DNA of 64,000 bases from Mesostigma viride (lineage: Eukaryota > Streptophyta > Mesostigmatophyceae > Mesostigmatales > Mesostigmataceae), in contig RPFO01000312.1 in NCBI GenBank assembly GCA_009746045.1, positions 1,032,323-1,096,322 on the forward strand, in the 5' to 3' direction. The position numbers and the translations under genes were made by a program. Positions 31,151-64,000 of the stretch are shown in pieces (the first letter of the stretch is position 1; the number at the start of each line of letters is the position of its first letter). The notes under the pieces are model-generated. The model did not search any database. It worked only from the letters and a program-made list of their open reading frames with translations, and was not told the origin of the DNA.

Positions 31151-31479
31151 GAACATAACTCCGGTTGGGAGTACATGTAGCACATATCCCTGAGAAGGGG
31201 CGTATGGCACATTCTGGGCAGTTACTTCCTTCAAGGGTATAGGGTGTAGACTACACCTGCTCTTGGTGCGCCAAGTGCACCTGCACCACCATGGTGTATG
31301 TATCAGAGCTCAATTTAAGGCATGGCATGGGGTGGAAGATCATCATGGCTAAACAATGGCTAGGGCATGGCTTCTCAGCAGTGAGAGTAGCTCTCTGCAT
31401 AGGCCGCAGAGCTTAGCTAAATTCTTAATGCATCATCCATGGGGGTTCCATTATAGGCAGGTGCGGACTCTGGCATGGC

Positions 31480-37291: not shown

Positions 37292-38973
37292 GTTACATGA
37301 GACAGCGCGGTTACGATGTGTGGGCACACGGGGCAAATACGTGCATGCACGCACACAAACAGGATCGGTGCATGCTTGTCAGTTACCCATGTGTGTGAGA
37401 TTAGACAGTCATCCACACGCGCATAGCCACTCGCGGGCTAGTTGGTGACTGCACAAACAACTGCAGCTGTGCTCTGAAGCCTGGCGTTATAATGCATCTC
37501 AAATGCAACCATCCGCCCATGATCATTGTTGGTGAGCTCAGTGCCGCCTGGTGGGGCTTTGCGCCGCGTGCACCAACCCAACACCCGGAGACATGTGCAA
37601 CCAGGACATGGCGCATGTGCTTCCTTCAGTACTTCCATGCACTCACGTACTGAAGGCATGGCGTTCAGGAGTCTTCGACCACGGTACCCCCCCCCGCTCC
37701 CTTCCCTGTGCATGGCAGCCAAGGCGCGGCACCCACCTGCACTCATCAATCACCCACCTGCACGACGACGTTGTGGCCCAGCAGGCCCCGCGCCGTCGCC
37801 AGGTCGCAGTTCCAGTCGAGGCCGATGACGTCCGCGGTGCACTTGGCCAGCTCTGCCTCCTTGCCCGTGCCGCCGTTGGCGTGGAAGATGAGGGGCACGC
37901 CCGGCCGCTGCGCGCGCACGGCCTTCATCACGCGCTCCGCGTAGGGGAGCGAGAACTCGCGGAACTGCGCCGGCGACAGGTGGTGCGCCCACGAATCAAA
38001 CAGCTGGACAACCTGCAGGGGGGGGGTGGCCAGGGGGGCATGGACAGGACCAGAGGATGCCGAGCCCAAGGGGATGCCCACGCCCACGTCCGGACGTCTC
38101 ACGGTAGCAGATGGTGAGCAGAACACCTCGATGCAGGCAAGGGGGTCGCCCCGGGGCGCCAAGATAGCCTCATTATTCTGCTTATGATTAAGGCCTCATT
38201 ATTCTGCTTAAGATCGCCTCATTATTCTGCTTATGATTAATGAAATCTAATTATTCTAGTCATGCCGAGGTCTTCTTCACCTCAAATAAATGCATGAGTG
38301 CACTCATGTGAGATGGTAGCTGGACCCCACAACGAGTGATGAGTGGGTGCCATGCTGCTTGGTTTCACAGCCAGGCGCACACCCTCTGGCCCGCCCGCCC
38401 GCCCGCCCGCCCGCCCGCCCGCCCGCCCGCCCGCCCGCCCGCCCGCCTGCCCGCCCCTGTGCTCCATCCAGATGCGCTCACCATCCTGTTGGAGCTCCCT
38501 TGCTGGCCTGCCACGCTGCTGGCATACGTTCCATACGAAGTTGGATAGGTCCTTGCACCAGTGCATGCTTTTGGGAGCTGTTGCGTGCGCATGCGGCGCA
38601 CTCTCCCCGAAGCAGATCGACAGCGGCATCTGACGATGAGGGCGGCTGCCAGGTGTCGGCTCACCCGCACGCGCCGCTGTCCACTTGCCAATCATTCGCG
38701 CGCCGTTCAATACTGCTATCGAGGTTGGCACATGCTAGTGTACGTGATGTATACGTATACTAATATAGTGTCCGTGATGAATACATATACTACTATAGCG
38801 TACGTGATGTATACATATACTAGTATAGTGTACGTGATGTATACATATACTAGTATACATCACACGCGCTGCCTACCTGCGCGCCGCTGTCGATCTGGTA
38901 GACGATGTACGTGGCCAGCGCGTCCGACAAGTGTGACAGGAAGGCATGGATGATCTCCGGGTCTGGGCGACCA

Positions 38974-43244: not shown

Positions 43245-46200
43245 ATGGAGGAATGGCTCGGCTTGCCCCTCGGTGTATGGAAGTTTATGCTATGCCTTTT
43301 GGGGTCCCTCCCAGCATCTTACGGCCTTCGTAAGGTTGAGGGTCGAGCGGGCAGAAATTCTTATGCCTTTTGGTCTGGAGCATTGCTCTGCGTCATGGCC
43401 TTCGACTTCTCGAGCGTCCTGCAGCTTCTCCTTCTGTCAGCTGTATCCTACATTATCATGAAAGTATGGAGAAGCCATTGCGGCATAGCCGTCTTCGTGG
43501 TCTCCTTCACGTACCTGATTTCATGGTACGTCGATTTGTGAGTGCTATTGGGGAGCATGGGTGGCGCCTTCTCCAGTTGATTGGAACGCTCCCATTTCTT
43601 TATTTAATAATTTTTCCATTAGGTCGCGAAGGTTATCGGAGGTTTAGCGAGATCGGGTATGGGGGGCCATCAATTTCATTTTTTGATTCCACGAAAAAGC
43701 CCGGGGTATCGTGCACCTCCCACAAATTTGCTGCACATTTGCCGGTGTTTTGCGGCGTACTCCGCGTAGTGACGAAGTAATTGCCATCGCATTACCGGCG
43801 GTGGTATTATGAGTGCCGTAGCGTGGAGTAGTATAACTGCATCAATGAGTTATAGCTCCTGATAATAAGCGAGCTAGGCATTGTGCATTGCATTCGGATG
43901 TGCAAATACAAGCTCACCGTAATTTTCAGTAGGAAAATGCAAGTTGAGGGTATCATTGGTGGGACAAGGAGTGATTGAGAAAGTTGCTTTTTTCTGAAAG
44001 GAATTTTGGTTCGCTGTACGCCCATGTGATGTATCAGGCTGTTCACTGTATGCCCATGTGATGTATCAGGCTGTTCACTGTACGCCCATGTGATGTATCA
44101 GGCTGTTCACTGTATGCCCATGTGATGTATCAGGCTGTTCACTGTATGCCCATGTGATGTATCAGGCTGTTCGCTGTATGCCCATGTGATGTATCAGGCT
44201 GTTAACTGTCTGCCCATGTGATGTATCAGGCTCTGCGCGTCCTCTGTGGGCAGTAGCGTGTCTTGTACATGTTTGCTTGTCGTACCCGGGTAGGGACCGT
44301 ACCCATGAAGCTGCTTCGGTCAACGTCAGCAGCGCCATCCCGCTCATGTACCCCACATTAGAGTCGAGGCATTCTAGCGTTCCATGCCTCACATGTGGAG
44401 GCTTTTGAGACTGTGCCTGTCTCCCCCCCCACCCCCGCTTCTCTCCCCTCTCCTAGTTCCTGCGATGGTCTTGTGCTGGGACACGTGGTGACCCCATCAA
44501 CGCATGATGTGGGCGTGATGTGGGCGGGGTTCCACCACCCCCTCCTCTTGCCCACCGCCCTTGCTCACCCTCCTTGCCCACCCCCCTTGCCCCACCCCTT
44601 CACCCATCCCCCTTGCCCACCCCCCTTCACCCCCCCCCCTGGCCGCCGCCCCTTGCTCACCCTCCTTGCCCACCCCCCTTAATGGCCCACCGCCACGGTA
44701 CACAGCCACTGGGTGTACGAGAGCGCATCTGCCTGGAAATCCGGTCGCATCGACTTCACCGGTGAGATAAAGGGCTCCCATGACACTGCGGTCTGCCACG
44801 CGTCCCCTTTCCAGTATCAGGAGCATGCGCACGTAGCAGAATGCGTGCGGTGAAGTGGGTCAAGTATGTCCCTGTGTTCGTGCGGACTAGGCAGGGAGCG
44901 TGGCGCCAACCACCTGCTGGCGGCACTTGATGCGGACATTGGTGGCTGCCCCTTGCGGGTGGGGGCTGGGATGTACTTATGTGTCCCTGTCTGGCGGTGA
45001 AGTAGAATGGATAAGAATAGCATAACGCCTTGCAGTTGGTACCCAGTGCGCATGCGGGTCCCTGTGGGCATCACACCCATGGAGCTTCGTTAGTCGGGTA
45101 GGGGCGGAGGGTAGGTGGCGGAGGGTAGGTGTAACTGGCGCAGCTGTGGTCGGGGACACCCACCTTGGAGGCGATGTGGGCATGCCAGCAAGTGGGTTCT
45201 GGGCACAATAGCCAGCTGGCATCGAGGACTTGCCAGGGGTGCATGCGGGTGGGGGGGCGGGGAGAGATGGGAGGATGTTTTTCCCTTCAATGATCGCTGT
45301 AGTCAAACTCTCGCACAGCGGCAACTCACCTCCGCACTGCCTGTTTGCCAACGTGCCACCCATTCTCCCCCCCCCCCCCCCACAGGGTCCCTGATGCTCC
45401 TCACCCTCAAGCTCATCTCGCTGGCCTTCAACTACCAGGATGGGGCCAACCCAGCCAAGGTGCGAGGGGGAAAGGGGGGGTGGGGGATGGGGCAAGGGGG
45501 CAAGGGGGCAAGGGGGCAAGGGGGTAAGGGGGCAAGGGGGCAAGGGGGCAAGGGGGCAAGGGGGCAAGGGGGCAAGGGGGCAAGGGGGCAAGGGGGCAAG
45601 GGGCACGGGGGCAAGGGGGCAAGGGGGCTGGGCGGAGACAGCCATGATGGGAATGCCATGATGAGGGTGGTTTGTCAACGATATCAAGGAGACAACCAGC
45701 GCAGGACAGAAAAGATATACCCATAGTCCAGCGCGATCCTTTGCCATCAAGTTACATCATCCAACATGCATTGCCGTCAAACATGACATCATCAAACATG
45801 CATTGCCATCAAACATGACATCATCCAACACGCATCGCCATCAAACATGACATCATCCAGCACGCATTGCCACCAAACACGACATCATCAAACATGCATT
45901 GCCATCAAACATAACATCATCCAACATGCATTGTCATCAAACATGACATCATCCACCATGCATTGCCATCAAACATGGCATCATCCAACATGCATTGCCA
46001 TCAAACATTACATCATCCAACACGCATTGCCATCAAACATTACATCATCAAACATGCATTGCCATCAAACATTACATCATCAAACATGCATAGCCATCAA
46101 ACATGACATAATCAAACATCCTCTGCCAACAAACATATACCTCATCAACATGCCTTGCCATCGTACAGCAGTTCCCGGTAGGGCAAGGATCGGGCAGGAG

Positions 46201-49200
46201 GTAGGGCAAGGATCGGGCAGGAGGTAGGGCAAGGATCGGGCAGGAGGTAGGGCAAGGATCGGGCAGGAGGTAGGGCAAGGATCGGGCAGGAGGTAGGGCA
46301 AGGATAGGGCAGGAGGTAGGGCAAGGATCGGGCAGGAGGTAGGGCAAGGATAGGGCAGGAGGTAGGGCAAGGATCGGGCAGGAGGTAGGGCAAGGATAGG
46401 GCAGGAGGTAGGGCAAGGGTAGCGCAGGAGGTAGGGCAAGGATGGCGCAGGAGGTAGGGCAAGGATAGCGCAGGAGGTAGGGCAAGGATAGGGCAGGAGG
46501 TAGGGCAAGGGTAGCGCAGGAGGTAGGGCAAGGGTAGCGCAGGAGGTAGGGCAACGATCGGGCAGGAGGTAGGGCAAGGATAGGGCAGGAGATAGGGCAA
46601 GGGTAGGGCAGGAGGTAGGGCAAGGATCGGGCAGGAGGTAGGGCAAGGATAGCGCAGGAGGTAGGGCAAGGATAGGGCAGGAGGTAGGGCAGGAGGTAGG
46701 GCAGGAGGTAGGGCAAGGATAGGGCAGGAGGTAGGGCAGGAGGTAGGGCAAGGATCGGGCAGGAGGTAGGGCAAGGATAGGGCAGGAGGTAGGGCAAGGA
46801 TAGGGCAGGAGGTAGGGCAAGGATAGGGCAGGAGGTAGGGCAAGGATAGGGCAGGAGGTAGGGCAAGGATCGGGCAGGAGGTAGGGCAAGGATAGCGCAG
46901 GAGGTAGGGCAAGGATAGCGCAGGAGGTAGGGCAAGGATAGGGCAGGAGGTAGGGCAAGGATAGCGCAGGAGGTAGGGTAAGGATAGGGCAGGAGGTAGG
47001 GCAAGGATAGGGCTGGAGGTAGGGCACGTTCTGGTGTTGGGATGTGGTGGCTGTGACCCTCATGCGGGTGCACGCGGTGGTCGTGTCACAGCTGCATTTG
47101 TTAATACGTGTTGCACCGCCTGAAGCGGCGATGCCTCCACCACAGGGCTACAGACCTCATGGGGGCCCATCACTGGGGCCAGGTAAAATGATGGAGCGGT
47201 GTAAAAGGATGGGCCACATATAGTAGCTGGCATGCATGCCGCGTACAATGACGGCCCCTCTCCCTTTATATCGCCCAAACTGCCCCTCCTTCACCCCCCT
47301 CCTTCTCGTCCCCCTCCCTCCCTCCCTCCCCACCCTTCCCACCCCTCGGTCTTATTGTCACCCCTCTTCCCTTTTCCCTTCACTTCCTTCCACCTCCTAT
47401 TCCCTCTCATCCCCCTCCCGCTCAAGCGCACATGCCTGCTGTGGCGCGTGGCGTGTCCACCGTGGTCAAGGCTCTACCTATATGTTCTCCCTCACCTCCC
47501 CCTCCCTCGTCTCCCACGCTTCTCCCACTATCTCGCTCCCCTCCCCTGTCCTTGTTCCCCCCCTCCCCTCCCCCCCCTTTCTGAGCGCTCGCAGGAGAGC
47601 CTGCAGGACGTGCATGTGCAGCACGCAGTGGCTGAGATGCCGCCGCTGATGGAGTTCCTGGGGTACCTCTTCTGCGGTGGCAGCCTGCTGGCGGGGCCTG
47701 TATACCAATTTGACATTTACCGTGCGTTCATCAACTATGAGCGGGTGAGTGGGCCATATGAGGCTGCCACTTGGATGGTGCCTGTTGCTACCGATTGGGT
47801 GAGTTGGCGGGCCTGCTTCGATGTTTCCAGCCACAAACTGACAAGTAGGGCCCCCCCAGCAGGGGGATAGGGTCATCAGCCAGGGGCGGTTTTCGGCACC
47901 TGGTCTAGCGAGGTATGTAATGGTCACATGCACCTCTTCGCTGATGCGTGCGTCCACCTTGCAACATGGAAGTGCGTACGAGTAGCCTACAACCAGGGTT
48001 GCTATCGGTGACGTGAGCCAGGCATAGCGTGGGTATGGCACCGGTGCACGCGGACATGCGTCAGGAGGCCATGCATTACAAGGACATACGTGATGTAGGC
48101 AATGGCACAGCTGATGTAAGCAATGGCACAGCTGATGTAAGCAATGGCACAGCTGATGTAAGCAATGGCACAGCTGATGTAAGCAATGGCACAGCTGACT
48201 CTGCGTGGTGGCTGGGCGGGCCAAGCTGTGGGGAATGTCATCCATAGGCTGCCAGACGTTGTCCGGCGGGCTGGGGGTGGCAGGAGGAAGGGGGACAGGC
48301 AGTCGCGAGGGGCTGTCAGCCGCGCATGCAACAAGGCACATACCCAGTAGCTTGTTGATGAATCGTCTGCCTGCTCACCAGGGCGAGCTGTTGCGTCACC
48401 GATGCTGGACCAAAAATCATACTTTCAACGTATGGCAGGGACTTTGTGCGTACCATGTGCGCGCTATGTGCGCGCTATGTGCGCGCTATGTGTGGACTGA
48501 TTTGCGGATTGATGTGCGGGCTGTGCGTGCATTATGCGTGCACCAACGTGTGCACTAACACAAGGGGCGGGGCGTGCATTATTTGTGCGTGCACGATGAC
48601 AGGAGTACGACCGAGACCAGTCGCGCCCCATGCCGCAGGAGCTCACGCCCGCTCTGCGGTCCCTGGGCGCGGCGCTCATCTTTGCCGTGCTGCACGTCCT
48701 GCTGGGCACTTACCTGCCCTACTCGGGTCTGCTGGCCGACGATTTTGGCGCGCGCAGCCTGCCTGCCAGGTAGCTGCAGGGGGTGTGGGGTCTGCTTGGG
48801 CGGCGCCAGCTGGTTTCCTTCCCCTGTCTGTGAGGGCCGCTTGTTGCTTGTGACGCGGTGGCGGGAGAACCCGAGGAGGGCACTAGGAGAGAGGGGAGAG
48901 CACCGCAGGCGCCGCCGGCGGTGTGGAAGGCAACCAGGTGGCCATGCTGCTCTTTGCTCGAGATTTGAGGGCGAATGGCTACCTGGTTGGGAATCTGTTT
49001 GCCATACCTAGGCACAGGGGTGGCGGGTGTCTCGTCGAGGATCGTATGAATCGTACCTGGTGGGACGTCCGTTGTTTGATCCAGTGTTTGTCGGGTATTA
49101 ATGTTGTTTCGCACAAGCTCTCTCTACCATGAGAGGTGGAGGCCCTACAAAACGCAGTTGGCAGCATCCGCAGGAGGATGATGCTGTGTCTGCGACAGAT

Positions 49201-52200: not shown

Positions 52201-55200
52201 GCGCTGGCCTTGTTTGCTTCCCCCTTGCGCCCCCCCCCCGTTGTGCCCTTGTTGCCCTGGGTCCGCGTGTAGCTTAGAACGAAGGTTGCCCTTGAGAGGG
52301 CGGACATGCCACCGCGTGCTGTGCGCATCCAGCCTCGCCCTGTCATACATCCCTGCCAAGGGGCATGTCGATGTTGATGCTGCCACCACGTTATTGTATG
52401 CGCTTGCTCATGGCACCCGCCGCAGTGGCCGGTATCACTGCCCGCGCGTCGTTGTCTGCCGAGTGTGGCCACTCGTCCCTTGGGCTACCACCGCCCGGGG
52501 GGGGGTGTTACACCCATCATGCTTGTCCAGCAATTGCTGTTCTGTGGTCTGAAAACAGCACTGGCCTTTCTATTCCAGCCATGCATCCTTAACGGCTTCC
52601 CATGGGTTGTGTTGGGGGAGCAGACGTGTACTTGCGTCCGGTACCGCGCCACCGCACGCCCACCTTCCTCAACCTGGCTATGACGCAGGTGGTAGCGGGC
52701 GTATGGCATGTAAGTGGTCGGCAGTTGTTCCAGGGATTGTTTGAGCCAATCCATCAAGGGCATTAATAAATCAACGGAACATTTTTAGTTCCATGGAATA
52801 CGGAACATGGGTGTTAAATAATAGACAGCATGCCTAGTTGGAACATTTCTAGTTCCATGGAATACGGAACATGCGTGTTAAATAATAGACACCATGCCTA
52901 GTCCATCAACAACGTGAGGAAGCAAGGTGCCGGCCTTTGCGTGGGAGAGGGTGGGCGCGCAGGTGGCACTAGGATTCACCCGCCAGCGGAGGGCCACGTC
53001 CCAGCAATACGCGATGTGTGGCCACCGGCACGGTGCCACCTCGTGTGGGTGGTCTGGTGATGGTCTGCTGGCACCTGGGGTATAGCCCAGGGGGCGCCGA
53101 TGCATGCAGGCCCCCGCGCGTACAGGACACAGATGTGTCCAGTCGCCACTCGCGCCTCGTCTTCTTTGGACAGTAGAGAGCCAAGTTGACGTGAAAGTGG
53201 AGAGCCAAGTTGAGGTGAAAGTAGACAGCCAAGTCCATGGGAGTGCTTGTGACAAGGCGGTTGACCTGGAGATGCACCCGTGTGTGTGAGCAGGAACGCC
53301 TCAACACAGGATGGCTCCTGCTCATTGTCTTGCTGCTGCTTTGTGGTGCGGCTGCCAGCTGGCGTTCCTTCCTCCTATCGCATGCCTGATGCCACGTACC
53401 AGGCCGTGTTCCTGCGGCTGCGGCAACCAATCATCCTCCCCAGCTCCAGAAAAAGGGACTTTGCCAGCTGGGGGCCACCATGTGCAGTAACACAGTGGCT
53501 TGGAAAAAGGGCTCGCAATCATGGCAACAACTTCCCTTCTCGCCTCGCATGTGCCACACCGCTACCAGTATACCAAGCGCACAGATGCTGCTTCCCATCA
53601 ACATGGCGCAAGGTCCTTGGCTCTGGCGCGCTGACATTGCGGATGTGGCATGCTGCTCTCTTCTCTGCCTCTGCACCTGCCCCCCTCACGGCTCCCCCCC
53701 GCGCCCACCCCCCTGCAGGGCCTCTACCCAGGGTACTTGATGTTCTTCGTGTCCAGCTCCCTGATGATCGCCGCGTCCAAAAGTGAGCGGCGGCGTGTAG
53801 GCACATTCACGTTTCGCGCCACGCATCGCCGCTCACGATCGCACTTTTTGCTTGTTGGGTGGTGCTCATGGCCCACCAAGTGTGGAAGGGTGGTGTGTGG
53901 CGTGGCGTGCTGTGGGCATGGGCAGCGCCGCATGCTTCCTTTTTTGCCAGACACACGCCCATGCTAAACGAGCCATCCTGAGATCTTTTCCATGCTGCGC
54001 CATGCTGCTGACTGGTATAAAACCTAGAGGCCAAGTTATTGTAGTCATGCTGCTGACTGCTCTAGCTCTAGTCATGGTCCTTGCAAAGATCCTGCCCATT
54101 GTGCTACCGCTGCTGTCACTGTTGTCATCAACGCCTGCCTCCCTGCGTGTTCAGTGCTGCGGCGCCCGTGGATGCTGCTCCCCCAGCGCCATCGGTTTAC
54201 GCATCGGACGTACAAAAGCGACCCGCAGTATGTGTGGCTGGAGCCTGTCAGTGAACATTGCAGGCACCTGCCACCTGGCACCTCCGTGGTTCCCAGGCTT
54301 GGCGTATAGGGCACGCGTTTAACACAAAACACAAATGCTTTTTTGTGTAATTGGCCTTGTTCTTGTTCGTTCGTCCTGTGTTGCTTGGTTGGCTGATGAT
54401 GGCCTTTGCCCCCCCACAAGTAGACCCCCCTGCCAGCTTGCATCCCACCGTGAGGAAGAAGATTGTGGCACGTGTGGGTAGCCCTCCTTGCCCATTCTGC
54501 ATCCTTTTGTTCATAATCCCCTGCCTCTGTTGATGAATTCCCCCCCGCCCCCCTGGCCTCCCCCTGCAGCAATCTACCGGTACCGTCCTCTGGCGCGCGG
54601 TCGCTATGCGCTGCTCGCGTTTGACCTGGTGCACGGAGTGATGTCGTCCGTCATGCTCAACACCTTTGCGGTCGGCTTCATCGTGAGTGGGGCCAGGGGC
54701 CATAGGGGCAAGGGGCAGGGGGGGAATGGGGTACCAGCGATAACTGTGGACCGTGCTGCGATGGATAACAAGGTGAAGGGGGGCTAGTTTGGTGTCAGTT
54801 TTTGAAACAGGAATGGGGTACAGATAGGTGATATGTGGCGAATGGATACAACCCGGAACTCGGTGCAAACTTGAAAAAATGGGAAGCGGTTGTGAAATGG
54901 GGATTGTTGTTGATCATGTTCAGTAGTATTCTCCCCCCCCACATACTTGTGGGTGTCGGACTGTCGGTGTGCTGGCCTTTGGGCTGGTCCCCAGCCATTG
55001 TTGTCTGCGGTAGCAGTAGCTTGTGCGGACCAAGTGGGGGCCCCTCGTCCTTGACCATTGCCCTTGTTATACTGGTCTAATGTCACAGTGATATGCGCCA
55101 AATGCAACCGTATACTCTATTCAATGGTGGCCTGCACCTCGTTAGATCACCCTCGTATACTCCCGCCTACATGCAGCGTACAGTACATCCACGCCTACAT

Positions 55201-57266
55201 GCAGCGCTCAGTGCATCCCCCGCCTACATGCAGCGCACAGTGCACACCCGCCTACATGCAGCGTGCAGTGCATCCACGCCTACATGCACCGTGCAGTGCA
55301 TCCCCGCCTACTTGCCGCGCTCAGTGCACACCCGCCTACATGCAGCGCACAGTGCATCCACGCCTACTTGCAGCGTGCAGTGCATCCCCGCCTACATGCA
55401 GCGTACAGTACATCCACGCCTACACGCAGCGTGCAGTGCATCCCCGCCTACATGCAGCGCACTATGCATCCACGCCTACATGCCGCGTGCAGTACATCCC
55501 CGCCTGCATGCAGCGTGCAGTGTGCATCCCCGCCTACATGCCGCGTGCAGTGCACACCCGCCCACATGCAGCGTGCAGTGCATCGCTGTCTGCATGCAGC
55601 GCACAGTGCATTGCCGCCTACATGCAGCGTGCAGTGCATCCCCGCCTACATGCAGCGTGCAGTGCATCCACGCCTACATGCAGCGTGCAGTGCATCCCCG
55701 CCTACATGCAGCGTGCAGTGCACACCCTCCCACATGCAGCGCACAGTGCACACCCGCCCACATGCAGCGTGCAGTGCATCGCTGTCTACATGCAGCGCAC
55801 AGTGCATTGCCGCCTACATGCCGCGTGCAGTACATCCCCGCCTGCATGCAGCGTGCAGTGCACACCCGCCTACATGCAGCGTGCAGTGCATCCCCGCCTA
55901 CATGCAGCGCACAGTGCACACCCGCCCACATGCAGCGTGCAGTGCATCCCCGCCTACATGCAGCGTGCAGTGCATCCACGCCTACATGCAGCGTGCAGTG
56001 CATCCCCGCCTACATGCAGCGTGCAGTGCACACCCGCCCACATGCAGCGTGCAGTGCATCGCTGTCTACATGCAGCGCACAGTGCATTGCCGCCTACGTG
56101 CCGCGCACAGTGCACACCCGCCTACGTGCAGCGTGCAGTACATCCCCGCCTACATGCCGCGCACAGTGCACACCCGCCGACATGCAGCGCACAGTGCATT
56201 GCCGCCTACATGCAGCGTGCAGTGCATCCCCGCCTACATGCAGCGTACAGTACATCCCCGCCTACATGCCGCGCACAGTACATCCCCGCCTACAAGCAGC
56301 GTACAGTGAGGCCATCCCGGGAACACTTGGGGCGGTGGGCTGTGGGCCATGCGTCGGGTATGAGGACGTGCTGGGTGTTGCGAGGGGGGTTTCCCCCTGG
56401 CAGGTGTTGGCCCCGTGCTGACGCGGTCCCAGGCAGGGTGTCGCATGGTCTGGTTGCTTGGGGATGGCTTGGCGTTTGTGTGGGAAGATGCGAGCCTTCT
56501 GGGCCGGACGCAGGGTGGCCGCGGCCACACACCCTGTGCCCCCCTGGCTGGTGTATGCAGTAGCCGTATGCCACTAAACAAAACGCTCTATAGAGTCAGT
56601 CTAGTGGCAGGGGAGAGGTGCTTGAGTGACCCTGGGGTCAGGGAGAAGTAGCAGCCCCCTTGGTCGCGGTTGCAGAGTTAGCTGTGATCTACATCCTGGC
56701 TGTGGTAATGTTCTGGAGAGTCGTGGACTTTTGTTTTGTGGTCAGATGCACCACCCCGTGCTCTGCCCTCGCTGGTTGGGCGCTGCTTGCCGTCTCTTCC
56801 CCTGCCCCCTGCCAACAGTCCATGGCTGATGCTCGGGCTTGCATTTTGCACATGTTTCTCACTCCCGCTCAGCTCACAGCTGCCCTCTGCCTTGTGCACG
56901 TTTTGACTCTTCTCCCCCCCCCCTCCCTTAGCGTCCGTGCTCATCCCTCCCTCGCCCTCAACCCTCGCCTTTGTCCTTACCTCTGTCCCACTCCATGTTG
57001 CCCCCATCTTTCCCCGTCCCGCTCCCCATCTCACTCCCCATCCCACCACCTGTCACACGACGGCTCACTCTCCCACCAACCAACCCACACTCTTCACCCC
57101 GCTACGCGCGCAGCTGCTCCACTTCTGGGACACGGTGCACGTGCTGCACCTGTGCTACTACCCGGGCTACCTGGTGGCAGCGGCAGCCCTCCTACTGCCG
57201 TACATATACCGGCCCCCCAGCCGCACGCTCATGGCCCGCCCCGTGACCCGGCCAAAGACCATGTAA
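43245..57266 (+). CDS. MBOAT lysophospholipid acyltransferase (LPCAT/LPLAT type), complete (13 exons, 510 aa)
   Basis: A membrane-bound O-acyltransferase of the ER that re-acylates lysophospholipids with acyl-CoA (Lands cycle). Exons: 43245-43525, 44706-44761, 45386-45459, 47595-47744, 48603-48769, 49563-49700, 52064-52167, 52624-52709, 53719-53782, 54155-54250, 54421-54471, 54570-54682, 57114-57266. Phases agree throughout and the total is exactly 511 codons. Exons 10 and 11 are the least certain (donors at 54251 and 54472 chosen by phase). The protein is multi-pass from its N-terminus (VWKFMLCLLGSLPASYGL). It aligns by eye with plant LPLATs: LISCHWVYESASAWKSGRID, GSLMLLTLKLISLAFNYQDG, EFLGYLFCGGSLLAGPVYQF, FKYYFGWKTGEAGMKLSGLA, the PLNWNITTSDWLR motif (Asn about 314) and the catalytic-His motif VAGVWHGLYPGY (His 352). 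Substrate specificity cannot be told from sequence. The introns are filled with minisatellites and one LINE fragment. Confidence 0.93.
44014..44234. repeat. 32-bp minisatellite in acyltransferase intron 1
   Basis: Six to seven copies contain GCCCATGTGATGTATCAGGC followed by TGTTCACTGTA, in the intron 43526-44705. Confidence 0.93.
45480..45630. repeat. (GGGGGCAA)n octanucleotide array
   Basis: About 18 copies of GGGGGCAA start 20 bp after the donor of exon 3 (45459). Frequent GGGG runs lie on the transcribed strand. Confidence 0.95.
45755..46150. repeat. Minisatellite of about 32 bp (CATGCATTGCCATCAAACAT unit)
   Basis: About 12 copies of ATGCATTGCCATCAAACATGA followed by CATCATC(C/A)AA(C/A), with point changes, lie in acyltransferase intron 3. 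Confidence 0.93.
46175..47025. repeat. 23-bp minisatellite (GGGCAGGAGGTAGGGCAAGG unit)
   Basis: About 37 copies of a 23-bp unit GGCAGGAGGTAGGGCAAGGAT(A/C), with ATAGCG, ATCGGG and GGTAGC variants. A locally shortened 11-bp version (GGGCAGGAGGTA) occurs at about 46680-46750. It lies in acyltransferase intron 3 (45460-47594). The Leu/Pro/Cys ORFs on the minus strand are artefacts. Confidence 0.96.
48085..48205. repeat. 21-bp minisatellite (five to six copies)
   Basis: The unit GCAATGGCACAGCTGATGTAA is repeated in acyltransferase intron 4 (47745-48602). Each unit contains the palindrome CAGCTG. Confidence 0.93.
49715..49895. repeat. GGT/GTG-rich simple sequence
   Basis: An imperfect GGT trinucleotide run starts 15 bp after the exon-6 donor (49700). 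The Val/Gly/Cys frames are artefacts. Confidence 0.9.
49960..50842 (+). mobile_element. LINE ORF1 fragment with 3' hairpin and TTAA tail, inside acyltransferase intron 6
   Basis: The frame 49994-50422 (ATG start) encodes an ORF1-type nucleic-acid-binding protein. It has ETSTSLADELKNQLLTLMGL, a Lys/Arg-rich RRM-like core (PPVLLTFPSPEDKQRFLSRR), LTWTLDDDLTPAQQQQRRDL and a C-terminal YWRGGDLMI. A diverged minus-strand relative lies at 32644-32994. The element ends at 50794-50842 with CTCCGTGACTCCCCAACGGG followed by AGCACG and TTTAATTAATTAATT, the same 3' terminus as the RT-bearing copy at 32482-32530. ORF1 is followed directly by the 3' UTR and no RT is present. Confidence 0.75.
50870..51025. 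repeat. 27-30 bp minisatellite (GCGAAGCCTCTTTTGTTGNT unit)
   Basis: Five to six copies of AAGCCTCTTTTGTTG(G/T)TGGTGGTGG(C/T)G directly abut the LINE tail at 50842 in acyltransferase intron 6. Confidence 0.9.
51542..51785. mobile_element. Foldback/MITE element with long inverted repeats
   Basis: The element starts AGTTAGGTTAATATTGTGC and ends with the inverse, GCACAATATTAACCTAACT. About 80 bp at each end are near-perfect inverted repeats (both include the CTCGGCTTCTAAGGTTCCG motif or its complement). A further inverted copy of the CGCACAATATT/AATATTGTG module lies in the middle. It is flanked by ATGGT at 51537-51541 and 51786-51790, a likely 5-bp target-site duplication. It has no coding capacity. 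The family and the mobilising transposase are unknown. Confidence 0.75.
52776..52903. repeat. 64-bp tandem duplication
   Basis: Two adjacent 64-bp copies differ at few positions. Each contains AGTTCCATGGAATACGGAAC with internal GGAAC/GTTCC complementarity and GTTAAATAATAGACA. It lies in acyltransferase intron 8. Confidence 0.9.
55155..56312. repeat. 28-bp minisatellite (about 41 copies) in acyltransferase intron 12
   Basis: The unit contains CCGCCTACATGCAGCGTGCA followed by GTGCATCC, with CGCACAGTGCACACCCG, TTGCCGCC and GCTGTCTA variants interspersed in an irregular order. The array fills nearly half of the 2.4-kb intron 54683-57113. The unit length is not a multiple of three, so three forward Cys/Pro/His/Ala frames stay open for hundreds of codons. 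They are artefacts. Confidence 0.96.
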
Positions 57267-59370
57267 ACCGGTCACGCGTGCGCCGCGCGGCGACGCCACC
57301 TGGCACCAGGGAAGCATGGTTGCCTTGCAGAGATGTAGGACATGGGTCCCTGGTGCCCACGCTGGCGTCCGCCACGTGTCGCCCCCAGCAGGCACTGCCA
57401 GCCGGTTCCCTCTTCCCCCCCCATCCACACCCCAGGGCGCCTGCCAGGTGGGTGGGTGGACAAACCAGCAAGTGGCACGCCCGCGCAACAATTTTGATCG
57501 TTCAGCCATGCTGGCCTGGCAGAATGACCGTGGGCGGTGGCAGGGAGGCCATCGCGGGGCCTGCGACCATCTGTGGGTCGCCCTGGCACCATGCCAGGGA
57601 GTGTAGCGGAGAGCGTCCACACCTGCAGGTGTGGGTTCTGCTCCTGTCTGTGTGGCTGTTGCTCCCACACCATGGCCCCCTGGACCGAACGAGGCGGCAC
57701 ATCCATGGAAACCTCCGTGGGCACGTTTGTGGAATGTGCCTATTAGAGTCCCATTTGCCACGTGGCGGCTTGTGGTGACATGGGCGAGGGCCACACGCGC
57801 CGCTGGCCCCCCATGGTGCCTGGCCCCACAAGGGAAGGTGTGGCCGTGCCATTTGACAAGAGGGGCCCTGTAGCGTTGCCTTGCAGGGATGCAGACGCTG
57901 CTGGCACCTGGCTGTGGCCCATCACAGACCCTCCTTGCCTGCGCAGACTCGTGTGTTGGCAAGCTCCCATTTTTTCGTGTCACAGCGCATGCCAGCAAAG
58001 GCTATCTGCGAACGGCATTGACATGGGCTGGCCATGTTCAAGTCTGTCCCTGCACTGTGCAAGGGGATGGCTTGACCCGATTCATGAGGATGGGACATGA
58101 GCGCCCCTACTACATCGGCACCACATGTAAGCGGCCACCCTACGAATGCACGACACCGCCGACATGCCTGCATTTAAATGACTTGGACGGCATGTCATAG
58201 GGAGTGAATGCAAGTGATTTATGGCATGTCTGTAACCCTTACAGGGCAGGACAGCAATAACCAGCCTGCCCCAGTGAGCCCTTGACAGGGGCCGCACAGC
58301 ATTTGCTCCTTTTTGCCTATGGAGAGCGACCAAACTGCGCCCCATTAATCCAAAGCCTGACCTATGTCTATGTGGCTGTGAACTCCGGTTGGTTTGGGGA
58401 AATGGTGTCAAGCAAGCCGTTTTTCAGTCTACTAGGCCAGCATTTTTGTTTGATAAAACAGTGAAGCATGCATGTCCTCGTCCTTGGAGGGCTGCTTCAC
58501 CGACTTCCATGGTGAGATTGCAGTCAATAGTCGTCTCACTTAATGATCATCCGACGCCCAACTTTCCACTTTCTTCATCAATGCCGGTACTCCTAGACAG
58601 CCACGCGGCTCCTGCTGTCGTCGTGCCGGCCTTTTCTCTCGGACAACGACACCAGTCCTTACACAGCATCGTCTTGCCATGCACGCATCTAGGAATAGTA
58701 AAAATAAGTACTCTACAGGGACGTGCAACCATATGTTTCACTTTGTACAACCTATGTGTACTTATTGTTGTCTAACGAAAACTATTTCAACATTTATTTC
58801 GCAAACAGAATTACTGGCTACAACAGATTTGACTCATGTGTCACAAGGGGACGAACCCTTTTACACAATCAGCACCGTCTTATGCTAGCTCGCACGAGCT
58901 CCTCTCACTGCCGCAAGCAGGTAGGCCGGGCCATGTACAGACTATGAACGGCTCTCTGCAGCGCGGCACCTGACTGTGGACATCACCGACGTGAGGACAA
59001 ACCGGCAATGAACTGAAATGGTGCCCTCAGCCTGCCGTCAGATCAATCAATGCCCCTAGCATGGTGCAGACCAGACTCACTACGGCTTAGCTGAAGAGGC
59101 GGGGATGCCGCCTAAACATCACATCGCGGGTGTCACGGACGCGAGCTATGTCATCCGGGCACCCACTATGCACAAGACCGGTGACGTGCGCAAGGAATTT
59201 GTTTTCTGCGCATTTTCGACAAAGGCTAGTGACCGGGGGGGGGGACACTAGCACTTGCAGCATAAGAGCGGACGAAAGTGCACGTGCATGCGCGCCGGGC
59301 CAGGCACGGCTGGGCGCGCAGCACTGACGTACTTGAGCGGACGGCAGCACAAGTGCGCAGCGTCGAGAGG
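57267..59370. other. Intergenic after the acyltransferase gene, no gene recognised
   Basis: The acyltransferase stop codon lies within ATGTAA, which includes TGTAA, the polyadenylation signal common in green algae. Beyond it I find only short, unlinked ORFs and no domain. From about 58200 the sequence becomes more AT-rich. Confidence 0.35.
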
Positions 59371-59390
59371 ATCATACGCGAGTTAGTGGA

Positions 59391-59430
59391 CAGCTGGAGC
59401 TGGAGCTGGAGCTGGAGCTGGAGCTGGACT
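59391..59430. repeat. (GGAGCT)n hexanucleotide run
   Basis: Six to seven copies of GGAGCT (TGGAGC) occur in tandem in the intergenic region upstream of the retroelement. Confidence 0.9.
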
Positions 59431-60584
59431 GCTGGACTTCAACAGCGCCGAGGCTATTGACAGGCCAGGTGTCTTTGTGGTGTAGAATAGCGGGTCAACG
59501 TTATGAGGACTGGACAGAAAATGGAAAAGGACAATTTGCGGTGCGGAGCCAGATCGCTGGAATGAATGCGAAATCGCTGGCAGCCCTACAAAGGGATTTC
59601 TTCTAGAAAGGAAAGATTAGAAGCAATGTTTGCTGGGCCACTCACACGCAAGGTGTGAGCGTGCAGATTGTTTGAAGGATATTATGCTTCGACCTTGGTG
59701 GTCGTGACTCAATGCCGGACATTCCCAGGGACAGAAATGCCGGAGCCTCTAGGAGATGAGATCGGCAACAGGGTAGCAATTTAGATTTGTCGGGATGCCT
59801 TCCTGCTTTTGTTGGCATGTGTGGTAGTAAGCCAGGACGGCAACTGGAATGCGTTTCTATTTGCATGGTTCAGGCAGCAAGATAGTTTGGCATTCCTGGC
59901 TGGACTGACAAGTGTGGCGTGTGTCATGCGTGTGGCATGACGAATGGTTTGGTTCATAGTCGAAGAGGACTCTCACGTAGCGTGTAGTCTCTTCGAGTCT
60001 CTCGTTAGTGGCCTTCGTGTTTCTCCCTTTCCTTGGGAGCAAGGCCGGTAGCATGTCATGGAGCGCTGCCTAACTGCGGGCTCGTGAGCATGGAGTGCAT
60101 CGATATTGAGACTATCAACGTGTTGTAATTGTATTAACTTTCTCAATAAATTCCGCATGTGCGGCTTCATCATCAGACTGTGCAAAGTGTGTGTTGTGAA
60201 AGCATTTTCTATAGCAGGGGAGGCAATAAGGTGGTCATCAGGCACGAGGGACAGTTCCTTGTCCTCGGCTGAGAGCCCTCCTTTCGTTACTCGAAGAGAC
60301 TACCCGGTAGTCTGCTTCCTTCTGTTCGAAGCCAAGACGTTGGCTTTAGTGTTTATCAACCATCAGCAGTACAGGGAACGGCCTGGCTGACAGTTTGTAA
60401 AGGAAGTGTCTTGAGACAGATTTTAAGAAAATAGAACTAGCCAGAATTTGCTGGCTCTTGTCTTTTTCTGGCAGGCTAGTCGAGTCGTTATCCTTGACGC
60501 CTGTTATAAAGCCTTTGGTTGTTGCTTCTTCTCAGCGAAACCTAGGCTTGTTGGTTCTTGTTTTGCCCATCGGTCAGCTGGTGC
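59431..60584 (+). other. Probable 5' flank/LTR and leader of the retroelement
   Basis: This 1.1-kb AT-richer stretch precedes the Gag start codon and should contain the 5' LTR and primer-binding site if the element is complete. I could not define LTR ends (no second LTR is in the window) and saw no convincing tRNA-complementary primer site. No gene is recognised. Confidence 0.3.
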
Positions 60585-63500
60585 ATGCCACTGACGCGAG
60601 CGCAGACTCGAGCCATGGCGGATGCAAATAGAGCAGATGCCGACACGTCCGCTCCGGGGTCGAATGGCGGGATTCCTCCCGCCGTACCCGCAGTGGGTGA
60701 GAGTCGCGACCAAGAAGCGCCGCTGAGTATGGTGGCGCTGTTCGCGCAGATGCAAGCGCAGATGCAGCAACAGTCGCAACAGTTGCAGCAGCAACTGGCG
60801 CTGCAGATGCGGGAAGTGACCGACAGATTGGTGGCCGTAGAGGGTCGTCATCTGCAGTCCACACCATGGGACGGGCAGGCATCGATGCCGGGCCCAAGTG
60901 GTGTTGCCGCGGAGCCGAGGGAGCGGGACCAGCCGCCAACCTCAGGTAATGCGGCGGGAAGGGCTCCGATGGAACCGGGGGTTTTGGCTGGGTCGCTAAC
61001 CCAACACGACTTGCTTGGTGAGGCGGATGGTCAGCCACGGGGCGAGTATACGCTGGCGCCCAGGCGCCTGCCTTTCGATCAAGCGCGAGACGGATTGCAC
61101 GAGGAGAACGGGGCAGGGCTGGCGCGCGCGATGGACCCACGCAGGGGTGCACCAGGACGCATGCTGCCAGGCGGGGTCTCAATTCCGTTTGGGCGAGGCG
61201 GTGGGGCGCTGACCGGCGGGTCGACTGCACGGTGGTCAAGTGTGCCAATCGGGCGCATTCCGCCCATGGAGGACATAACCACGCCGCTGGCTTTCCGAGT
61301 ACGGGAGGCAGCACGCCCAAGCACGCTGGCGCAGGGACGCGCAGCTCAGCGACCGCCGGAGGATGCCGATGGGGTGCAGTACCCGCAAAGGGTGCGCCTC
61401 ATACCTGAAGGCGCGAAGATGCCCACCCTACCACGGGTGGACATGCGCGAGAAGTTCTCCACAACCGGCAATCTGGCCACGCTGGCGCAGGCCTACAACG
61501 CGTACAAGTCATGGATTGATCTGCAATACATGACTACGCAAGGCGCTGTAATGCATGAGTTTGTGATGAACAACATGCATTTCTTCTTTCACGGCCTTAC
61601 GCTGAGGCGAGTGGCTAGGCTGGTGGAGCAGTGGAGAGAGGTCTCGCTGTACACGCGTCACACGGACGTGTGGTTCGGCTTCGACGGGCGTGGCCAGCCC
61701 GACTATGACAACATCATGTATGGTGTCGACCCTGCCGAGGAACTGTGGGGCCTCCTTCGCCAGGAATACCCGGTGGAGACCATCAAGGCAGAGCGTGAGT
61801 GGCGCAGTTTCAAGATAGCCGAGGGTGAAACCCCGGAGCAATCTTACGAGCGCCTCATGGAGTTCGCCGGCGAAGTGGAGGACTGGTCCGAAAAGCTGGC
61901 GTGTCAGAAATGGCTGCAAGCGCTAGGCTCCAAGGAGATGGAGCTGCCCACGCCGCCCAACGGCCAGCCGTGGCGATTGCGGTCACTGTGCATTGAGGTC
62001 AGGGCCATGATGCGACGACACGCGCAAGGCCGGATCTCGGTAAGCACGGTGGTGGCCGAGCTGCAGGCCAAGGTCGACGCGCTGACCAAGGCCAAGTCGG
62101 GTGAGTCGTCTGCCACAAGACAAGCGCGCCCGCAAGGCGGCCACGGTGCTAGCAGGAACCAAGGGGGGTCTCGCAACGCCTCATCGCATGATGCAACCCA
62201 GGGTAACGCCGCTGGCGGCAACAAGGACGCTGCCGCTCCGCCGACGCGAGCTGGGGGGGGCACGTCCTCACAGACGGGTAGGACGGATGCGCGCAAATCG
62301 GGCTGCTTCCTGTGCGGTCAGGATGGGCACATCAAACGTGATTGTCCCAAGGCGTGTAAGAAGTCACACCCGGCAACGGTCCGCACCCATCTGGCGGGGC
62401 AGTGCCCAGCGCCGGGGGTGCACTTTGCGGACGTGGAGGACAAGAAGGTGGACGCGGGGGTGGTCATCATTCAGCCGACGGGCGAGGCGGGGGGACGTGA
62501 AAGGGAGGATGGGGGATCGCAGGTTCAATACAGGGACGAGGACTTCTGGCGGCCAGCCGACGTGATGGCGTTGGACATCCACGCAGTTGGCGCGCGAGGG
62601 AAGCAAGCACGTGCACCGCCGTCGTTTCAGGTGGGGCAGCCAAGTGAGACTGTGGGGCAGCTGCCTCAGTCCTTTCGCATGGCTCCCGCTCGGACCGGCT
62701 CCACCCTGGAACACGACAATCCTGCTGGGGCAGAGCAGCGGCGCAGGTTGTTGCCATTATACCCTATGCCGTCGGTCGTGGACACGCCTGCATACACTCC
62801 CCGGCAAGTGGTCGAGTGGTTCGGTCAGCGGGCCGTGGAGGTGCTCGGGTCGCATGCGTCAGAGGTACAGCGGTACGCTGACACAATGGACGCCCGTAGG
62901 TTGCACAACGCTGAGACAGCCACATTTGTCGGGCATCGCCCTGCATCGGCTTCGGTAATCGTGGGTCATGTCGCTCATGGTGTCTTGGACAACGCGCAGC
63001 GGGCGTGCGTAGTGCCTAGGGCACCCACTGTCACCTCATATCCGGATGGCGAGCCAGCAATGGCGTTTCAGGCGCAGGGGCACGGGGAGCCCCTGAGCAA
63101 CGTGGTCTACAGTACTGACCATGAATTGGTCGTGAAACTGGACAGCGGGGCCCAGCCACTCGTTATCAGTGCTCGGCTGGCCCAGTTGCTCAACCTAACC
63201 AGGGAGAATGGCGGGCTGCGGGACAGTCATGTGTCCGTGGCGGGCTGGCAGGGCCCTGCCGCTAAACCCTTTGCCATGACTGCGGTCCAGGTAATGGTCA
63301 TCCTCAACCCGCTCAGGCCATCCGACATGGCCTGCATCCCTGTGAATGCCCTTGTGACCGAGCAGTCATCGTATGACGTGCTGGTCGGCATGGAGGTCAT
63401 GTTTCCCATGCGGCTCGAGGTACGCATGTGGGAAGGCCGCGCGGTGTACATCGTTGACAGAGACGGTGACGCCATGCGCCAAGCAAGCATCCCGGTGAGC

Positions 63501-63878
63501 TGCTACAGCTCGGACACTGGGGCAGTGCGTGTCTCGACGGTCAACCGGGTCGAGGCTGGCTCGCACGACGCGGTGGTGGAGGTACGGATGGGGGAGGTCA
63601 CGGCAGCTGGGGGGGCTGTGCGTGATAAGCATCGGCCGTGCATCCCAACAGCGCTGGTGGGACGGGCCTCATTGCACAGCACGTGGGCGGCGCGACAGCA
63701 GCCGCAAGCGCGGCAGGCCCTTTTGCGTCAGCACGTCACCAACGCGGTGCGGCAGCAACAACTCTCTCATCTCCCGCGGCAATCGCAGTCCAAGTGGCTG
63801 TCGCGACAACCGAAGGTAACTTCTGTGCCGATGTTGTGGCAGAGTCGCGGGTCTTGTCCGAAGGGGTTGTATTGCTAG
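60585..63878 (+). CDS. Retrotransposon Gag-protease polyprotein
   Basis: The first real ATG is at 60585 (MPLTRAQTRAMADANRA); the frame is open slightly further upstream from a TTG. Order along about 1,097 residues: a Gln-rich coiled coil (MQAQMQQQSQQLQQQLALQM), a low-complexity linker, and a capsid-type Gag region (nt 61440-62100, with YNAYKSWIDLQYMTTQGAVM and AEREWRSFKIAEGETPEQSY). Next comes a CCHC zinc knuckle C-X2-C-X4-H-X4-C (CFLCGQDGHIKRDC, nt 62302-62343), then a retropepsin-like aspartic protease (VKLDSGAQPLVIS, catalytic DSGA at nt 63141-63152; SYDVLVGMEVMFP later). This layout is typical of LTR retrotransposons of the Ty3/Gypsy type. The last 80 or so codons (after about 63629) overlap another open frame and may not be the true C-terminus. 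No RT is in the window. Confidence 0.9.
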   Translation: MPLTRAQTRAMADANRADADTSAPGSNGGIPPAVPAVGESRDQEAPLSMVALFAQMQAQMQQQSQQLQQQLALQMREVTDRLVAVEGRHLQSTPWDGQASMPGPSGVAAEPRERDQPPTSGNAAGRAPMEPGVLAGSLTQHDLLGEADGQPRGEYTLAPRRLPFDQARDGLHEENGAGLARAMDPRRGAPGRMLPGGVSIPFGRGGGALTGGSTARWSSVPIGRIPPMEDITTPLAFRVREAARPSTLAQGRAAQRPPEDADGVQYPQRVRLIPEGAKMPTLPRVDMREKFSTTGNLATLAQAYNAYKSWIDLQYMTTQGAVMHEFVMNNMHFFFHGLTLRRVARLVEQWREVSLYTRHTDVWFGFDGRGQPDYDNIMYGVDPAEELWGLLRQEYPVETIKAEREWRSFKIAEGETPEQSYERLMEFAGEVEDWSEKLACQKWLQALGSKEMELPTPPNGQPWRLRSLCIEVRAMMRRHAQGRISVSTVVAELQAKVDALTKAKSGESSATRQARPQGGHGASRNQGGSRNASSHDATQGNAAGGNKDAAAPPTRAGGGTSSQTGRTDARKSGCFLCGQDGHIKRDCPKACKKSHPATVRTHLAGQCPAPGVHFADVEDKKVDAGVVIIQPTGEAGGREREDGGSQVQYRDEDFWRPADVMALDIHAVGARGKQARAPPSFQVGQPSETVGQLPQSFRMAPARTGSTLEHDNPAGAEQRRRLLPLYPMPSVVDTPAYTPRQVVEWFGQRAVEVLGSHASEVQRYADTMDARRLHNAETATFVGHRPASASVIVGHVAHGVLDNAQRACVVPRAPTVTSYPDGEPAMAFQAQGHGEPLSNVVYSTDHELVVKLDSGAQPLVISARLAQLLNLTRENGGLRDSHVSVAGWQGPAAKPFAMTAVQVMVILNPLRPSDMACIPVNALVTEQSSYDVLVGMEVMFPMRLEVRMWEGRAVYIVDRDGDAMRQASIPVSCYSSDTGAVRVSTVNRVEAGSHDAVVEVRMGEVTAAGGAVRDKHRPCIPTALVGRASLHSTWAARQQPQARQALLRQHVTNAVRQQQLSHLPRQSQSKWLSRQPKVTSVPMLWQSRGSCPKGLYC

Positions 63879-64000
63879 AATTGTTTGCTGGGATGGGAGG
63901 GGGGCTGGCTGGCTTTCTCGCTGCAGGCGGTACGTGCCACACGTTGATCGCCGTAGAGCCGTCTCCTACCGCTCGGGCAGTGTATAGGCATCACTGTGCC
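63629..64000 (+). CDS. Cytosine-5 DNA methyltransferase domain (N-terminal part, cut by window end), in -1 frame to Gag-protease
   Basis: In the frame -1 to Gag-protease, the sequence is open from after a TGA-TAA pair (63623-63628) to the window end. From 63866 it reads VVLLELFAGMGGGLAGFLAA, then TLIAVEPSPTARAVYRHHC. This is C5-methyltransferase motif I (the S-adenosylmethionine-binding FAGxGG loop) followed by motif II with its conserved acidic residue (VE). Motif IV (PC), the rest of the catalytic domain and the target-recognition domain would lie beyond 64000. There is no ATG in this frame before the Met inside motif I, so it must be reached from Gag-protease by frameshifting, or the shift is a mutation. 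The likely role is DNA cytosine methylation, possibly of the element's own copies; that role is inference. Confidence 0.8.

What the first reader, a model, noticed from the sequence alone, without database searches (positions are those of the whole stretch)
63629..64000. A retrotransposon that carries its own cytosine-5 DNA methyltransferase
Directly after a Gag-CCHC-protease ORF, the next frame encodes ELFAGMGGGLAGFLAAGG and later AVEPSPTARAVYRHHC, a textbook C5-methyltransferase motif I plus motif II. Methyltransferase capture by retrotransposons has been reported in only a few algal and dinoflagellate lineages; this looks like such an element with the enzyme placed between protease and the expected RT. 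It could methylate its own DNA and hide from or co-opt host silencing.
Basis: partly seen in the sequence, partly recalled or inferred. Interest (0 to 1): 0.88.

Follow-up and report, generated by a model that had tools for sequence, protein, structure and literature searches.

The report
Retroelement apparently carrying a cytosine methyltransferase
The end of this stretch of probable algal DNA holds what looks like the front part of a retrotransposon running straight into the beginning of a cytosine-methylating enzyme, a rare arrangement already described in two other groups of algae, but the sequence stops before the enzyme's active site and the reverse transcriptase can be checked.

Summary
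A 1,110-codon frame (60546-63878, +) carries a CCHC knuckle and a probable retropepsin. The -1 frame is open from 63629 to the window end and encodes ELFAGMGGGLAGFLAAGG (63878-63931) and AVEPSPTARAVYRHHC (63950-63997). That fragment matches methyltransferase profiles in four libraries at the same residues: PHROG 1.5e-5, PADLOC 0.0018, NCBIfam dcm 0.025, Pfam 0.083 (the last two below cut-off). The best solved structure is a plant DNA methyltransferase (15 of 43 identical, ungapped, E 0.06). Ten control frames gave nothing better than PHROG E 0.087. The gag stop codon overlaps the start of motif I, and codon usage weakly supports a frame switch there. A Gag-Pol with a methyltransferase directly after protease is the best reading. 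It is unproven: catalytic motif IV, RT, integrase and 3' LTR would lie beyond the window, no relative was found, and the own-genome search did not complete (16 tries). The kind is known (de Mendoza 2018: dinoflagellate LINE and DIRS, Klebsormidium Gypsy); this would be a further member. Host: probably a green photosynthetic eukaryote.

The parts
60546..63878 (+). Gag-protease open frame, 1110 codons stop to stop; in-frame ATGs at 60585 and 60615
   Evidence: codon usage highest in this frame in the windows starting 63300-63600. The name Gag rests on the knuckle, the protease and position: no Pfam gag family matched
62301..62351 (+). CCHC zinc knuckle
   Evidence: PF00098 E 1.2e-5 on the whole frame, 4.1e-7 on the 50-aa piece, above cut-off
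63120..63398 (+). Probable retropepsin-like aspartic protease with DSGA
   Evidence: PF13650 E 0.0045 on the whole frame, 1.9e-4 on the 164-aa piece; PF13975 6.5e-4; all below Pfam cut-offs; no PDB match
63629..64000 (+). Open -1 frame without an ATG before motif I; start of the presumed Pol
63878..63931 (+). Methyltransferase motif I, ELFAGMGGGLAGFLAAGG
63950..63997 (+). Methyltransferase motif II region, AVEPSPTARAVYRHHC
   Evidence: same phenylalanine-to-glutamate spacing (24) as the plant methyltransferase 4onq in an ungapped alignment

Best explanation
This is the 5' part of an LTR-type retrotransposon whose Pol begins with a captured C5 cytosine methyltransferase domain. Gag-CCHC-protease is translated from one frame. 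Pol is reached from it by a -1 shift, or some equivalent bypass, somewhere in 63629-63875. The methyltransferase is made as part of Gag-Pol, is released or retained next to protease, and is packaged with reverse transcriptase. The most likely role is to methylate the cDNA, so that a new copy looks like methylated host DNA or is set in a chosen chromatin state. Shown: the two frames, the CCHC, a protease-like domain and the N-terminal methyltransferase motifs. Inferred: the frameshift, the missing rest of the enzyme, the RT/integrase, activity and role.
For: Profiles of four libraries agree on a DNA methyltransferase, C5 where the base is named, at residues about 80-122 of the frame. The best PDB match is a plant DNA methyltransferase, ungapped with 15 of 43 identical and equal motif spacing. 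CCHC and retropepsin-like matches lie upstream in one long frame. Codon usage trained on gag scores the gag frame highest in all 11 windows starting 63300-63600; in the 5 windows starting 63630-63750 neither frame is clearly ahead (gag ahead in 3 of 5); in the 6 windows starting 63780 or later the methyltransferase frame is highest, and stops in the gag frame add to that; the best single switch point is 63835. The gag stop TAG lies across the codons that open motif I, leaving no room for a 3' LTR between the two. Precedents exist in print (PMC5890265, sections 6, 9-11).
Against: Only about 47 residues of the domain are in the window, so no catalytic PC motif has been seen. No RT, RNase H, integrase or LTR was found; a scan for tRNA-type primer sites in 58000-60700 found none. 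No canonical slippery heptamer lies in the right phase in the overlap: the one heptamer, CCCTTTT at 63718, is out of phase. The codon-usage score of 63879-64000 in the methyltransferase frame is small, 0.9, reached by 158 of 5000 shuffles. A single-sequence fold puts a strand where a helix is expected after motif II, but at mean pLDDT 58. Nothing similar to gag or to the fragment was found in the collections searched. Phage and plasmid tblastn of the fragment gave six rows at E 9 and none.
Confidence: 0.62

Rival explanations
1. A truncated or nested retroelement lies next to, or inserted into, a separate cytosine methyltransferase gene (host gene, pseudogene or viral insertion), so the enzyme is not part of the element.
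For: The window ends before any RT, so continuity of the element past the protease is not shown. Orphan DNMTs, some of viral origin, occur scattered in eukaryotic genomes (PMC12344493, section 5).
Against: The methyltransferase frame overlaps the gag-protease frame by 250 nt and motif I starts at the gag stop. No ATG precedes motif I in that frame. Codon usage weakly favours a frame switch within the overlap.
Confidence: 0.17
2. The element once had one continuous gag-pol frame with a methyltransferase, and this copy is broken by an indel or the contig has a sequencing error; the -1 relation is not a functional frameshift.
For: No slippery heptamer in phase in the overlap.
Against: The gag-protease frame is intact over 1110 codons. 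Gag-Pol in -1 register is common in LTR elements (general knowledge). This concerns the state of the copy, not the identity of the domain.
Confidence: 0.1
3. The match is to a different nucleotide-binding fold or is chance, and the region is a linker or an unknown Pol domain of the retroelement.
For: Pfam, NCBIfam and PDB E-values are weak (0.083 or 0.013, 0.025, 0.28 or 0.06), and the single-sequence fold is of low confidence, mean pLDDT 58.1.
Against: PHROG E 1.5e-5 and 6.6e-4 and most PADLOC rows name methyltransferases at the same residues, while 10 control frames gave no such match.
Confidence: 0.08
4. A DIRS-type element with the Dam-like adenine methyltransferase known from DIRS1 elements.
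For: DIRS1-like elements carry an RT-RNase H-methyltransferase Pol, and DIRS1-like or PAT-like families are listed for Chlamydomonas and Volvox (PMC3266345, passages).
Against: In DIRS1 elements the MT domain follows RT and RNase H; no RT or RNase H matched in the 1110 codons upstream at E up to 10, and the profiles that name a base name cytosine.
Confidence: 0.03

Closest known systems
KnitGypsy-Dnmt3 of Klebsormidium nitens (de Mendoza et al. 2018, PMC5890265)
   Same: C5 methyltransferase of DNMT3 kind carried in Pol of an LTR Gypsy retrotransposon of a green lineage; the fragment here is nearest, among solved structures, to a plant methyltransferase that I recall as tobacco DRM (a DNMT3 relative)
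   Different: Here the RT class is unknown. The methyltransferase starts right after a protease encoded in the Gag frame; the domain order in KnitGypsy is in a figure that I could not see. No sequence comparison was possible.
SymbioDIRS-Dnmt3 of Symbiodinium (PMC5890265)
   Same: DNMT in the Pol frame of a retrotransposon; de novo CG methylation in yeast reported for that enzyme
   Different: Tyrosine-recombinase element; here a protease-like domain argues for an LTR element
SymbioLINE-Dnmt of Symbiodinium (PMC5890265)
   Same: Retroelement-borne DNMT
   Different: LINE-type element with the DNMT mostly in an ORF upstream of the RT ORF; no CCHC-protease Gag in the sections read
DIRS1-like elements with a methyltransferase domain (PMC3266345)
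   Same: Methyltransferase domain in Pol of a retroelement
   Different: Domain placed after RT and RNase H; described as Dam-like adenine type in PMC5890265

Membership tests
LTR retrotransposon | Gag with CCHC zinc knuckle | tested here: met
   PF00098 4.1e-7, above cut-off; no Pfam gag family matched the rest
LTR retrotransposon | Aspartic protease | tested here: inconclusive
   Leans to met: PF13650 1.9e-4 on the cut piece and DSGA present, but below the Pfam cut-off, no PDB match, fold too poor to use
LTR retrotransposon | Reverse transcriptase, RNase H, integrase | not testable with these tools
   Would lie beyond the window end; own-genome search did not complete (16 tries)
LTR retrotransposon | Flanking LTRs and primer-binding site | tested here: inconclusive
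   No second copy in the window; no tRNA-type primer site in 58000-60700; the 3' LTR would lie outside
C5 cytosine methyltransferase (PF00145) | Motif I (FxGxG) and motif II | tested here: met
   Pfam and NCBIfam rows below cut-off
C5 cytosine methyltransferase (PF00145) | Catalytic PC of motif IV, ENV of motif VI, motifs VIII and X, TRD | not testable with these tools
   Beyond position 64000
DNMT3/DRM class | Class-specific similarity and motif spacing | tested here: inconclusive
   Best PDB match a plant DNA methyltransferase (recalled as DRM), equal spacing over 43 residues; E only 0.06; no tree possible from 47 residues
DNMT-carrying retrotransposon (de Mendoza 2018 sense) | DNMT inside retroelement coding region together with RT | tested here: inconclusive
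   Junction with Gag-protease seen; RT not in window
DIRS1-type element with adenine methyltransferase | Methyltransferase after RT and RNase H | tested here: not met
   No RT or RNase H row for the 1110-codon frame upstream at E up to 10

The most novel reading that the evidence does not exclude
A further, independent capture of a cytosine methyltransferase by a retrotransposon, in a green alga outside the charophytes, with the enzyme placed at the head of Pol between protease and RT so that it is made in every Gag-Pol and packaged with the replicating cDNA.
Probability: 0.25. Interest if true: 0.6.

Novelty: new member of a known kind. Interest (0 to 1): 0.42.

Why it matters
Retrotransposons are often silenced by cytosine methylation, so one that brings its own methyltransferase is a paradox. 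The two published lineages leave open whether the enzyme protects the cDNA, marks the insertion site, or limits copy number. A further lineage with the enzyme at a defined place in Gag-Pol would let that be tested by comparison. Until the downstream sequence is read, it is a promising fragment of a known kind.

Tried and rejected
Protein searches found nothing with gag-protease (7989 candidates scored, words from its first 500 residues only, E up to 1e-3), with the 124-aa frame (387 candidates, E up to 10), or with the last 80 residues of that frame under a longer length limit (505 candidates, E up to 10). Viral contigs gave no confirmed relatives for gag-protease, the 124-aa frame, the 54-aa piece, or the UROD exon; prokaryote genome contigs gave none for the 54-aa piece or gag-protease. 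Phage records: no match for gag-protease at E 1e-5, six rows at E 9 for the 54-aa piece. Plasmids: none for the 54-aa piece. The tools say that records of the window's own genome may be left out of these. Solved structures: no match for the protease piece. Single-sequence folds were too poor to compare with libraries: mean pLDDT 58.1 for the 66-residue methyltransferase piece, 35.5 for the protease piece, so no fold search was run. No LTR was recognised: no second copy of any part of 57001-64000 in the window. A 21-nt inverted pair at 59978-59998 / 60289-60309 was considered as LTR ends and left open, because no primer site was found after it. A canonical -1 slippery site was sought and not found in phase. 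A DIRS-type methyltransferase was rejected on order and on profile names. Papers on Chlamydomonas, Limnomonas and Symbiodiniaceae genomes and diatom DNMTs were searched for passages and gave no such green-algal element.

Full report
What is there. Searches show a 1,110-codon frame at 60546-63878 (+), with in-frame ATGs at 60585 and 60615. Pfam finds a CCHC knuckle (62301-62351; E 1.2e-5 on the whole frame, 4.1e-7 on the piece) and a retropepsin-like domain (63120-63398; PF13650 E 0.0045 on the whole frame, 1.9e-4 on the piece, below the curated cut-off). The PDB gave no match to the protease piece. No Pfam gag family matched the whole frame or the piece 61446-62085, so the name Gag rests on knuckle, protease and position.

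Is the methyltransferase real? Only about 47 residues of the domain are available. (PHROGs, 4 rows): PHROG_116 E 1.5e-5, PHROG_363 6.6e-4 and PHROG_5999 0.09, all named DNA methyltransferase, and one family of unknown function at 0.27. (PADLOC, 8 rows): MTase_II 0.0018 best; 7 of 8 rows are named methyltransferase or methylase, the other mads_2. (NCBIfam, 2 rows): dcm 0.025, and a precorrin methyltransferase at 0.65 that matches another part of the frame. (Pfam): PF00145, 0.083, or 0.013 for the last 54 residues. The methyltransferase rows match the same residues, mostly near the start of their profiles (PHROG_116 at 208-248 of 779). The NCBIfam and Pfam scores are below the curated cut-offs. 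As a control, 10 other open frames of this window, picked from the list, were scanned against PHROGs: 2 of 10 had any row, the best at E 0.087, all of unknown function. Among solved structures the first two of three rows are two entries of a plant DNA methyltransferase (4onq, 4onj; E 0.28-0.29 with the 124-aa frame, 0.06 with the last 54 residues; that it is tobacco DRM is recalled); the third row was an unrelated protein at 0.72 and 0.91. The alignment has no gap over 43 residues, 15 identities, and the same spacing between the motif I phenylalanine and the motif II glutamate. That points to the DNMT3/DRM class, but 47 residues cannot settle a class. From memory, not tested: this spacing is one or two residues shorter in DNMT1 and M.HhaI. 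In DRM the motifs are in rearranged order, VI-X before I-V (PMC9861306, passage); here nothing like motifs VI-X was seen before motif I. A single-sequence fold of 63803-64000 gave strand-helix-strand through motif I and then a strand where a helix is expected, at mean pLDDT 58.1, too low to count either way.

Is it part of the retroelement? The gag-protease stop (TAG, 63876-63878) overlaps the codons that open motif I, the two frames overlap by 250 nt, and the methyltransferase frame has no ATG before motif I. A codon-usage score trained on 60615-63600 is highest for the gag frame in all 11 windows starting 63300-63600. In the 5 windows starting 63630-63750 neither frame is clearly ahead (gag ahead in 3 of 5). 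In the 6 windows starting at 63780 or later the methyltransferase frame is highest (3.1 falling to -1.1; stops in the gag frame add to the contrast). The best single switch is at 63835. For 63879-64000 the score is only 0.9, reached by 158 of 5000 shuffles, so the coding signal is moderate. An open frame of 124 codons has a chance of about 0.023 at this composition, so openness alone says little. There is no canonical slippery heptamer in phase. How the ribosome, or the transcript, passes from one frame to the other is therefore unknown; a broken copy or a sequencing indel is possible.

What could not be seen. Catalytic motif IV, motifs VI, VIII, X and the target recognition domain, RT, RNase H, integrase and the 3' LTR would lie beyond 64000. 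No primer-binding site of tRNA type was found in 58000-60700 and no second copy in the window. No relative was found by word-based search of 5.8 billion proteins (one search drew words from the first 500 residues of gag only), in viral contigs, or in prokaryote genomes. Two of these three collections are viral or prokaryotic, and records of the window's own genome may be left out, so absence there says little. The own-genome search, which would have been decisive, did not complete (16 tries, listed under Tried and rejected).

Host. Pieces of a uroporphyrinogen decarboxylase lie at 37749-38195 and 39559-39801 (-) (Pfam E 2.4e-23 and 5.5e-13); that they are exons of one intron-split nuclear gene is inference. 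The best solved relative of the first is 1j93, by 19 bits over the next; that 1j93 is the tobacco enzyme is recalled. GC content of 49-73% per 2-kb window and many minisatellites fit a green alga, but the species was not identified. No tRNA and no Rfam family at its gathering score was found in the window.

Comparison. De Mendoza et al. 2018 (PMC5890265; abstract, introduction, sections 6, 9, 10, 11 and passages read) describe DNMTs in dinoflagellate LINE and DIRS elements and in a Klebsormidium LTR Gypsy Pol, under purifying selection, with CG methylation by the SymbioDIRS enzymes shown in yeast and the SymbioLINE and KnitGypsy results inconclusive. A 2025 survey of eukaryotic DNMTs (PMC12344493; section 5 and passages read) again names streptophytes and dinoflagellates for retrotransposon DNMTs, though it calls the LTR class Copia where the 2018 paper says Gypsy. 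A review reports, of a survey of 12 algal genomes, that DNMT3/DRM homologues were found only in a red alga and a charophyte (PMC9861306, passage); so, if the host here is a chlorophyte, a DNMT3-like domain would not be a simple capture from the host. In the rows that my paper searches listed (one search showed 20 of 75), judged by title and opening of the abstract and by passages of a few, I saw no report of such an element in a chlorophyte. Two more searches failed, and the older survey cited there for DNMTs linked to reverse transcriptase (Iyer 2011) is not held, so novelty of lineage is not established.

Mechanism. By analogy with the published elements, the enzyme would be synthesised in Gag-Pol, carried in the particle and act on the cDNA: masking it as methylated host DNA, protecting cytosines from editing, or affecting the chromatin state at the insertion site. 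These are proposals of the 2018 paper's discussion; nothing here tests them. Verdict: a well-founded fragment of a known, rare kind; a new member if the downstream sequence bears it out.

Noticed in passing
window 37749-38195 and 39559-39801 (-): Two pieces of a uroporphyrinogen decarboxylase, best solved relative of the first 1j93; suggests a photosynthetic eukaryote host with introns.
   Followed up: partly
window 6412 to about 11400: Tandem array with a 41-nt spacing (115 in-register matches to a 300-nt reference), open in all six frames.
   Followed up: no
window 14255-15410, 15872-17358, 40472-41687, 46072-47147, 55055-56563: Further stretches with long, repetitive open frames on one or both strands, which do not look like genes.
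   Followed up: no
window 31429-32340 (+), 30780-30977 and 999-1314 (-): Probable LINE-type remnants: a frame with YADD (RVT_1 E 0.22 only); just upstream of it 30780-30977 is 89-93% complementary to 999-1198 over 123 and 73 nt; the minus-strand frame 1009-1314 resembles the YADD frame by eye.
   Followed up: partly
window 59978-60309: Inverted pair of 21 nt, 290 nt apart, in the presumed leader or LTR region upstream of gag; meaning unknown.
   Followed up: no
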